Source of the DNA: Haemophilus influenzae
Lineage (GTDB): Bacteria > Pseudomonadota > Gammaproteobacteria > Enterobacterales > Pasteurellaceae
Direction: 5' to 3'
Assembly (NCBI RefSeq): GCF_019703545.1
Contig: NZ_AP018771.1
Location: forward strand, 1,838,537-1,902,536
DNA length: 64,000 bases
This document shows, one piece after another, positions 24,906-26,213 of this stretch; position 1 is the first letter of the stretch; every line of letters starts with the position of its first letter. The translations under genes were made by a program, and so were the position numbers. Under the pieces are notes generated by a model. It made no database searches. It saw only the letters and a list, made by a program, of their open reading frames with translations, and had not been told where the DNA came from.

Positions 24906-26213
24906 TTAAATTGGTACATCAATAGTTTCACGAGCTATACAAACACTATTTCTAATAACGTAGCATTCAACATAATGCTCTCCGCTAAAGTCTGAGTGTT
25001 CTTTCTTGAGAGTAGAACCTTTTTCAATTTGTCCCCTTATCCCCCTTCTGTCAGCTTCTTCTCCAACATTAAGAACTTTCCAATAAAAATCACATCCAAT
25101 AAAATCTTCAACATTTTCTACTCGAAAAACTAATTCTCTCCCTTTTGGAATTAATTTTAAACTACGATCAAATCTCGAAATTACAGAATAAATCAAAGGG
25201 CTATAATTAGATACCTTTAGAGAGAGATTCAATGGTTTCATCTCTTTTGATAAAGAAAACTTATCTTCAATAAATTCTTCAGTTGGTAAATTAGTATTCT
25301 CTGGAATAGGAAAATCTTGTCCAAAATGTTTTCTCATTTTTTTACAAGCATCTTCAACTCTTTTATTTTCATTTCTTGTTTCCTCAAGATCATCCTTAAG
25401 CTTACGTAATTTAGCCCTTAAATCGTTAGCTTGAGCATCAGTCAGATTTCCAAGCAAATTACTATATGGGGGTGTTGGCAATAAAATGTTTTTACGGAAT
25501 ATTGCATAATCTAGTTTACCTAAAAACTTAACCAAAGCTTCAACATCATTTGGGTTATCTTTCTCATTATTATAAAATGATGGCTCAAAATCATAATATG
25601 CCGCAACAGTAATAGCTATACTTGGTAGATTTTTATGATTTAATCGATTAGACCGCCACCGTTTCAATGCTCGAATACACCTTTTATACTAGGCTTTTTC
25701 TGCATCATTTGTAAATTTATTCTTAATTTTATTTACTAGATCTTTAGGCTCTGCTAATTCCCATCTTAGCTCTTCATCGTTAGGAGATTTTCCTCTTGCA
25801 AAATGAATCCTCCCACTTTTATCTTCTTTATAAATAGCAAAATCGACATGGTATTTATCCTTTTCACCTGATGTATATTGAACTGTAACGCAAGGCCGCT
25901 TAATCTTTACTGTTCTATTTTGATGTTGTAAAGCGATATAAACTTTATTTTTTATGTCATAAGGACAATTAAAAACGTTATTATCGGATTCTTTTAAAAT
26001 AATTCCGACATCTATGTCAAAATCTCCATCCTCAGGTTTTACACCAGTTCCCATTCCGTAACTACCTTGATTAAAATGATCAAAATCTAGATGAAGATGA
26101 TCTTCCAAATTAGAAATTAGAGTATCTCTCTTCTCTTTTAATTCAAAATTATACTTATATCCTGTTCTAATTCTTTCATTAAATTGTTCAAAGTATTTTT
26201 GTATATTAGCCAT
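24906..26213 (-). pseudogene. CBASS cGAS/DncV-like nucleotidyltransferase with AGS-C domain, interrupted by an amber codon
   Basis: A 435-codon frame starting at ATG 26213 encodes a CD-NTase. QGSYGMGTG (residues 49-57) and DFDID (D66, D68) with D124 in YHVDFAIYK form the catalytic centre. CIRALKRWRSNRL begins the helical C-terminal lobe, a coiled-coil-like stretch follows, and an AGS-C sensor domain ends the protein (YWKVLNVGEEA, then EHYVECYVI). One TAG at 25689-25691 (codon 175) breaks the frame after all three catalytic Asp residues; everything after it stays in the same frame. A CAG to TAG change would explain it. A TTG eight codons on (25667) could restart but lacks an obvious ribosome site. 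Probably inactive unless the amber is suppressed. Confidence 0.82.

What the first reader, a model, noticed from the sequence alone, without database searches (positions are those of the whole stretch)
24906..26213. CBASS nucleotidyltransferase broken by one in-frame amber codon
Seen: a 435-codon frame with CD-NTase catalytic motifs (GS at 50-51, Asp 66, 68 and 124) and a C-terminal AGS-C-type domain, split only by TAG at 25689-25691. Both sides are in the same frame and otherwise undamaged. Known: CD-NTases make cyclic oligonucleotides that trigger CBASS effectors on phage infection. Inference: a recent CAG to TAG change disarmed the system, or readthrough or suppression keeps it low. I do not know of a described CBASS at this chromosomal site.
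Basis: partly seen in the sequence, partly recalled or inferred. Interest (0 to 1): 0.85.

Follow-up and report, generated by a model that had tools for sequence, protein, structure and literature searches.

The report
Silenced phage-defence gene in defence hotspot
A Haemophilus chromosome carries a two-gene virus-alarm system whose alarm-making enzyme is cut in two by a single stop codon, and the spot where it sits holds a different defence gene in most of the related bacteria that were compared.

Summary
One TAG (25689-25691) splits an otherwise open 435-codon frame: a CD-NTase catalytic core upstream, AGS_C downstream. An intact 2TM-SAVED effector follows, so this is a two-gene, type I-like CBASS; the fold is nearest clade-B CdnB. 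Eight relatives in the protein database are full length; no near-identical truncated form was found. The break lies inside a predicted helix. I read it as a young loss-of-function mutation that leaves the effector without its signal. The one other family genome found with this gene (1 of 140) is also broken, by a TAA at codon 6, again with the effector open; matches in 10 genomes of other families had no internal stop. Assembly error remains possible; readthrough or a split enzyme is less likely.

The larger result is the site: a cargo slot directly downstream of metH. In 33 other Pasteurellaceae genomes (chosen, not random), 23 carry another PADLOC-recognised gene or system there (Gabija, Kiwa, retrons, Septu, Qat, SIR2-HerA, OLD-like and others). 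Cargo is AT-rich and lacks uptake-signal cores. One of these, a retron effector, also has a single in-frame stop. My paper searches listed no description of this hotspot. Exchange by transformation is inferred.

The parts
24906..26213 (-). CD-NTase (CdnB-like core plus AGS_C) reading frame, broken
25689..25691 (-). in-frame TAG at codon 175, inside predicted helix 170-190 of the intact relative P0026
25692..26213 (-). N-terminal piece, 174 aa: NTase core with G50, S51, D66, D68, D124
   Evidence: Pfam DncV-like_NTFase and SMODS; PADLOC cyclase
24906..25688 (-). C-terminal piece: helical part and AGS_C; first in-frame start codon TTG at 25667-25665
   Evidence: Pfam AGS_C 2.1e-27; ORF list
23830..24888 (-). 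intact 2TM-SAVED (Cap14-like) CBASS effector, 352 aa, starting 17 bases after the CD-NTase stop codon
   Evidence: SAVED 2.5e-36, Saf_2TM 1.2e-6 just under its cut-off; PADLOC 2TM effector 3.6e-83
26254..26283 (-). promoter-like site upstream of the CD-NTase; such sites are at chance level in this region (23 found, 20.7 expected)
23792..23824 (.). terminator-like hairpin between effector and metH remnant (terminator-like sites also at chance level: 3 found, 3.8 expected)
23780..26321 (.). cargo slot: AT-rich, no USS core, variable between genomes
22250..23779 (+). metH remnant (internal deletions, several stops); left border of the slot
26322..26645 (.). right flank with dyad repeat and inverted USS cores (26546 minus, 26614 plus)
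26646..27836 (-). AAA_14-DUF4143 ATPase, right border gene in many Haemophilus genomes (PADLOC candidate family PDC-S01)

Best explanation
A two-gene type I-like CBASS (CdnB-like CD-NTase with AGS_C, then 2TM-SAVED effector) was placed in a defence cargo slot downstream of metH and has recently been switched off by one nonsense mutation in the CD-NTase. The 174-residue product keeps the metal-binding residues but ends inside a helix and lacks the rest of the helical core and the AGS_C domain, so it should make no cyclic nucleotide. The membrane effector, which by family logic needs that signal to oligomerise and damage the membrane, stays idle. Shown: the anatomy, the stop, full-length relatives, a second copy broken in the same gene at another place, and different defence cargo at the same site in other genomes. 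Inferred: loss of catalysis, an idle effector, recent origin, and exchange of cargo by transformation and recombination between shared flanks.
For: Frame and domains. Full-length relatives: P0026 (93% identity, cluster of 28 member sequences) and 7 others at 57-69% identity over the alignment, with no stop at this column in 8 of 8. No near-identical truncated form: the N-piece search gave 9 proteins at 39-47% identity (candidates limited to 0.55-1.75 times the query length). No sign of long decay: of 17 polarised changes in the C-piece, 9 lie on the window branch and 8 on the P0026 branch. Position inside helix 170-190 of a model with pLDDT 87. Fold nearest to DwCdnB, then B. fragilis CdnB. 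In G053, the only match among 140 family genomes, the CD-NTase is open except for one TAA at codon 6, 429 of 435 positions equal those of full-length P0028, and the effector beside it is open. Matches to P0026 in 10 of 394 order genomes, all in other families: 0 of 10 with a stop inside. Slot contents.
Against: No raw reads and no second strain carrying this very locus were available, so an assembly error stays open. Only proteins, not DNA, of the 93% relative were reached. The window and P0026 differ 4.5 times more in the C-piece than in the N-piece, against 0.73-1.15 in the other 35 pairs; I read this as recombination, but relaxed selection on both branches is possible. The polarised N-piece changes are 2 on the window side and 0 on the other. 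The window copy was picked because it is broken, so the comparison of broken copies rests on one further copy (G053). Loss of activity was not tested.
Confidence: 0.73

Rival explanations
1. The TAG is a sequencing or assembly error and the CBASS is intact.
For: It is a single small event in a frame that is otherwise clean on both sides. The 8 close database relatives are full length, no near-identical truncated protein was found, and no reads were available.
Against: A second, independent copy (G053) is also broken by a single in-frame stop at another place, and so is the retron effector in the same slot of G008. The window has other decay that relatives share: the large metH deletion is also in G001, G002, G007 and G008.
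Confidence: 0.15
2. The amber codon is leaky or suppressed, so a little full-length CD-NTase is made and the system is kept at low gain.
For: The downstream frame is open and shows no excess of window-derived changes.
Against: The base after the stop is T, a context recalled as favouring efficient termination (own knowledge, not tested). None of the 8 relatives has a stop here. The stop in G053 is TAA at a different codon. No tRNA gene, hence no suppressor tRNA, was found in the window; the rest of the genome is not held.
Confidence: 0.06
3. Translation restarts at TTG 25667 and the two pieces form a split CD-NTase.
For: AAAAGG lies about 10 bases before an in-frame TTG that starts 21 bases after the stop codon.
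Against: The cut is inside a helix. The same stretch codes for mostly conserved residues, so the ribosome-site-like letters can be accidental; the relative in L032 has neither AAAAGG nor TTG there.
Confidence: 0.04
4. The pair works with inhibitory logic, as in Panoptes: the cyclase product restrains the membrane effector.
For: Both are two-gene pairs of a nucleotide cyclase and a transmembrane effector (PMC12657218, abstract and outline seen).
Against: The cyclase is SMODS/DncV-like, not an mCpol, and the sensor is SAVED. If the logic were inhibitory, a dead cyclase beside an intact effector should be harmful; yet both the window and G053 have a broken cyclase beside an open effector, provided the stops are real.
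Confidence: 0.02

Closest known systems
CdnB (clade B CD-NTase): Deinococcus wulumuqiensis DwCdnB, PDB 8YSC series, and Bacteroides fragilis CdnB, 7LJO
   Same: core fold and catalytic residues; the ten best Foldseek matches (TM by target 0.78-0.86; 32-33% and 21% identity)
   Different: the Haemophilus protein has an extra AGS_C domain and is split by a stop; product unknown
Type I CBASS with TM-SAVED effector (Cap14)
   Same: two genes, cyclase then 2TM-SAVED; the review PMC10419184 names Cap14 as a SAVED-containing TM effector and a one-cyclase, one-Cap operon as type I (passages seen)
   Different: the cyclase is broken here; membrane damage by this effector was not tested
CBASS pair of the unnamed Pasteurellaceae genome G053 (L032)
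   Same: same order and strand, about 70% alike in DNA over the aligned parts; its CD-NTase is also broken by one in-frame stop
   Different: lies beside VgrG/Rhs-type genes with a recombinase-like gene near (by eye), not at metH, which lies elsewhere on the same contig
Variable defence locus of Streptococcus suis (PMC5398294, abstract and outline seen)
   Same: one chromosomal site holding different defence elements in different lineages of a competent species
   Different: other phylum; here mostly one small cassette directly behind metH, in genomes rich in uptake signal sequences
Defensome of Actinobacillus pleuropneumoniae (PMC12242098, passages seen)
   Same: same family; reports CBASS and Gabija, some of them on mobile elements
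   Different: the word hotspot does not occur in its main text; no site at metH seen in the passages

Membership tests
CBASS | CD-NTase with GS and catalytic Asp triad | tested here: met
   both pieces match CD-NTase profiles; G50, S51, D66, D68, D124 conserved; but the frame is broken
CBASS | adjacent effector with a cyclic-nucleotide sensor (SAVED, STING or other) | tested here: met
   SAVED 2.5e-36 and PADLOC 2TM effector 3.6e-83 at 23830-24888
CBASS | functional synthesis of a cyclic oligonucleotide on infection | not testable with these tools
   needs biochemistry; the window's own copy is predicted dead
type I CBASS | only cyclase and effector, no ancillary Cap2/Cap3 or HORMA/Trip13 genes next to them | tested here: met
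   neighbours are the metH remnant and AAA_14-DUF4143
CD-NTase clade B (CdnB) | closest structural relatives are CdnB enzymes | tested here: met
   the ten best Foldseek hits to the P0026 model are all CdnB; no tree of clades was built
Panoptes | mCpol (minimal CRISPR polymerase) cyclase | tested here: not met
   SMODS/DncV-like domain and CD-NTase fold
chromosomal defence hotspot | one site holding different defence systems between constant flanks in related genomes | tested here: met
   23 of 33 other genomes have a PADLOC match at E 1e-8 or better in the metH-downstream slot; 0 of 10 other window genes at that level. The flanking ATPase itself matches PDC-S01 and was not among those 10. Other intergenic sites were not compared
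integrase- or transposon-borne island | integrase or transposase inside the insert | tested here: inconclusive
   none among the window's slot genes or 17 cargo ORFs of the first set by Pfam; the 8 ORFs of the second set and 28 of the third were scanned with PADLOC only

The most novel reading that the evidence does not exclude
The 3' end of metH is a dedicated, largely one-cassette defence-exchange site of naturally competent Pasteurellaceae. AT-rich cassettes without uptake signals are swapped by transformation through signal-bearing flanks. Self-harming cassettes are repeatedly silenced by single nonsense mutations in the part that triggers or executes suicide, while intact alleles stay in the population and recombination can bring them back.
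Probability: 0.3. Interest if true: 0.68.

Novelty: new member of a known kind. Interest (0 to 1): 0.52.

Why it matters
By itself a broken CBASS is ordinary decay. The site is more useful. The stretch just after metH is predicted to hold immune genes, and 10 of the 33 compared slots hold ORFs without a PADLOC match at the threshold used, which makes them candidates for new defence systems. Three frames broken by single in-frame stops (window CD-NTase, G053 CD-NTase, G008 retron effector) make the cost of carrying suicide-type immunity testable across strains.

Tried and rejected
Scans of genome contigs and viral contigs with the effector: 93 and 20 pattern matches, none a relative. The viral scan with the CD-NTase alignment gave 2 loci, at 35-36%. 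Plasmids gave 17 records with SAVED proteins, all under 60% identity; phages one distant NTase at 32%. The genus search with the C-piece: 0 of 10. P0026 in the family: 1 of 140; in the order: 10 of 394; in the class: 0 of 369.

Corrected on checking: I had taken the G053 copy for intact; flags one TAA inside and searches confirm it. Because of this I moved the best explanation from 0.70 to 0.73 and assembly error from 0.18 to 0.15, and the interest from 0.50 to 0.52. I had also written 41% as the highest identity; the range is 39-47%.

Considered as decay: the 4.5-fold excess of differences in the C-piece between the window and P0026. Rejected as proof of decay because polarised changes are 9 against 8; a recombination mosaic fits better.

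Considered: absence of USS cores in cargo as selection against them. Rejected: by my own arithmetic random DNA of 28% GC would give about 0.1 core in 61 kb, so cargo is at chance level and the flanks are enriched.

Considered: amber suppression as a strain trait. Not supported: the two other broken frames carry TAA.

Literature: the listings show no paper that, by title and start of abstract, describes a defence hotspot at metH or a Haemophilus CBASS. Searches found no paper at all; only the first 20 were listed; one search is weak because 'meth' matches many words (898 papers). Five listed papers were opened in part; one search was a dead end.

Full report
Observation. On the minus strand 26213-24906 is one frame of 435 codons with a single internal stop, TAG at 25689-25691, codon 175. 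The upstream 174 residues match DncV-like NTase (3.2e-12), SMODS (1.6e-7) and a PADLOC cyclase (7.8e-57). The downstream 260 residues match AGS_C (2.1e-27) and PADLOC cyclases (best 1.3e-38). The downstream gene, 23830-24888, is an intact 352-residue 2TM-SAVED effector (SAVED 2.5e-36; Saf_2TM 29.0 bits against a cut-off of 29.5; PADLOC 2TM effector 3.6e-83). With no ancillary genes beside it, this is a two-gene, type I-like CBASS.

The relatives. A search with the frame, X at the stop, gave 922 proteins at E 1e-3 or better, 120 listed. The first eight are 433-446 residues long and cover the whole query: P0026 at 93% identity (a 90% cluster of 28 member sequences), then seven at 55-69% by BLASTP. 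None of the 8 has a stop at the broken position. The search with the N-piece alone, which should find truncated forms, gave 9 proteins at 39-47% identity, the best-scoring at 41%. So this truncation was not seen elsewhere in that collection. Of 24 proteins found with the effector the nearest is 93% identical.

A second broken copy. Of 140 family genomes searched with P0026, one has the gene, G053. Its frame is open except for one TAA at codon 6. Position by position it equals the full-length database protein P0028 at 429 of 435 sites, and the effector gene beside it is open, 355 residues. As a yardstick, matches to P0026 were found in 10 of 394 genomes drawn from the order, all in other families, and 0 of 10 have a stop inside the matched stretch; a class-wide draw gave 0 of 369 genomes. 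The window copy was chosen because it is broken, so the fair comparison is one further copy, broken, against ten that are not. It suggests, but does not prove, that this cyclase is lost repeatedly while its effector stays.

What the break does. A model of P0026 (34 sequences, pLDDT 87.2, pTM 0.69) puts position 175 inside helix 170-190. The truncated product keeps the three Asp residues but loses most of that helix, the remaining helical core and AGS_C. The nearest solved folds are DwCdnB structures and then B. fragilis CdnB; V. cholerae DncV, CdnC, CdnD and cGAS follow lower. Loss of activity is therefore an inference from structure. The effector is then expected to be idle, because in CBASS the cyclic nucleotide activates it; a review names Cap14 as a SAVED-containing TM effector that damages the inner membrane (PMC10419184, passages seen). 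Panoptes works the other way round (PMC12657218, abstract and outline seen), but its cyclase is an mCpol, and a dead cyclase would then free the toxic effector.

Age of the break. Window and P0026 differ at 4 of 174 positions in the N-piece and 27 of 260 in the C-piece, a ratio of 4.5; the other 35 pairs of the alignment have ratios of 0.73-1.15. Using the other seven as outgroup, 9 of the 27 changes lie on the window side, 8 on the P0026 side and 10 are ambiguous; of the 4 in the N-piece 2 lie on the window side, none on the other and 2 are ambiguous. There is no excess on the broken copy behind the stop. I take the asymmetry for a recombination mosaic and the stop for recent. A restart at TTG 25667 behind AAAAGG is possible, but the letters also code mostly conserved residues, and the relative in L032 lacks both.

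The site. The gene after the effector is a metH remnant, 22250-23779, and the gene before the CD-NTase is an AAA_14-DUF4143 ATPase. Of the 10 genus genomes held, 9 match the metH end and 9 the ATPase protein, in pieces in G003 and G009. Comparing the loci shows the same flanks with different contents between them. Contents by PADLOC: G007 AbiP2; G008 retron II-A; G010 PDC-M45; G005 Kiwa; G002 PDC-S49 (the two halves lie at the ends of two contigs, join assumed); G004, G009, G003 and G001 no match (in G001 metH and the ATPase lie apart). That is 5 of 9. Five further genomes from named records: L033 Gabija, L067 Bibersteinia trehalosi Gabija, L068 Rodentibacter pneumotropicus OLD-like, L070 Rodentibacter caecimuris retron II-A, L042 only a weak match (ZacB, 1.3e-7, counted as none). 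That is 4 of 5.

A third set came from a family-wide search: 84 of 140 genomes have the metH end and 61 of 140 a relative of the ATPase. PADLOC at E 1e-8: G130 PifA-like, G058 SIR2-HerA, G050 QatABCD, G082 OLD-like, G076 retron III-A, G070 Septu, G074 ApeA-like (weak, 1.9e-12), G073 JukA, G075 OLD-like, G080 TIR-NLR, G081 PDC-S47, G028 TIR part of an Argonaute-associated family, G072 PDC-S11, G027 OLD-like; none in G031, G078, G079, G032, G030. That is 14 of 19. Over the three sets 23 of 33 other genomes have a match at E 1e-8 or better. The 33 are not a random sample, and 16 of the 19 in the third set have no ATPase match in the fetched stretch, so the constant border is the metH end. Ten window genes from outside the slot gave none at that level, one marginal at 9e-4. 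The flanking ATPase, not among those ten, matches the candidate family PDC-S01. The PDC families are candidates only, and a PADLOC match is not a tested function. Other intergenic sites were not compared.

Features of the slot. Cargo mostly starts within about 100 bases of the metH stop, and in 27 of 33 genomes the first cargo ORF runs in the direction of metH (read; recount); in the window it runs against metH. Cargo GC is 0.26-0.32 against 0.38-0.45 in flanks in 13 slots, and lower than the rest in 19 of 19 loci of the third set. USS cores: 0 in 26,447 cargo bases against 88 in 128,512 flank bases, and 0 in 34,488 against 66 in 124,131. Random DNA of such low GC would also give about none (my arithmetic), so the flanks are enriched and the cargo looks foreign. 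In 12 of 19 third-set loci a short lipoprotein-like ORF resembling the one at window 27886-28191 follows further on, by eye, so the right side is shared even where the ATPase is absent. Exchange by transformation between these flanks is an inference. Only the 17 first-set cargo ORFs were scanned for integrases with Pfam (none).

Another silenced cargo. In G008 the retron II-A effector aligns over 312 residues with one TAA at codon 41, while its reverse transcriptase covers the PADLOC profile (2-293 of 304). I did not examine all cargoes for breaks, so the number of broken ones is a lower bound.

Source. The nearest held genome shares 48% of sampled words and has the contig length of Haemophilus aegyptius NCTC8502, so the window is probably from the H. 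influenzae/aegyptius group.

Verdict. The broken CBASS is real in the given sequence and ordinary in kind, though a second broken copy hints at repeated silencing. The hotspot is the part worth following; in the paper searches I saw no description of it, and a comparable locus is known in Streptococcus suis (PMC5398294, abstract and outline seen).

Noticed in passing
22250-23779: metH is a remnant with internal deletions and several stops. The large deletion is shared with G001, G002, G007 and G008, while G003, G004, G005, G009 and G010 have metH frames of 1229-1240 residues.
   Followed up: partly
L022:4533-5474: The retron II-A effector in the same slot of another Haemophilus genome (G008) is interrupted by one in-frame TAA; its reverse transcriptase looks complete.
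   Followed up: yes
L032:5171-6478: The CD-NTase of G053, the only other family genome found with it, has one in-frame TAA at codon 6 and an open effector beside it.
   Followed up: yes
L025:3017-4437, L027:2732-3927, L026:4324-5764, L031:3184-4684: Slots whose ORFs match nothing in PADLOC or Pfam at 1e-3; the pair in L026 recurs, by eye, in L080 at another genome's metH end. Candidate new defence genes by position.
   Followed up: partly
26646-27836: The AAA_14-DUF4143 ATPase matches the PADLOC candidate family PDC-S01 at 520 bits and is a frequent right neighbour of the slot in Haemophilus, in pieces in G003 and G009.
   Followed up: partly
L033: A record titled Pseudomonas stutzeri NCTC11607 carries Haemophilus-like sequence here (87-94% DNA identity to the window in the flanks), so it is probably mislabelled.
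   Followed up: no
L042:9288-10397 and L079:1468-2577: Very similar 370-residue ORFs (by eye, first 70 residues) in the slots of two different genomes, without a PADLOC match at 1e-8.
   Followed up: no
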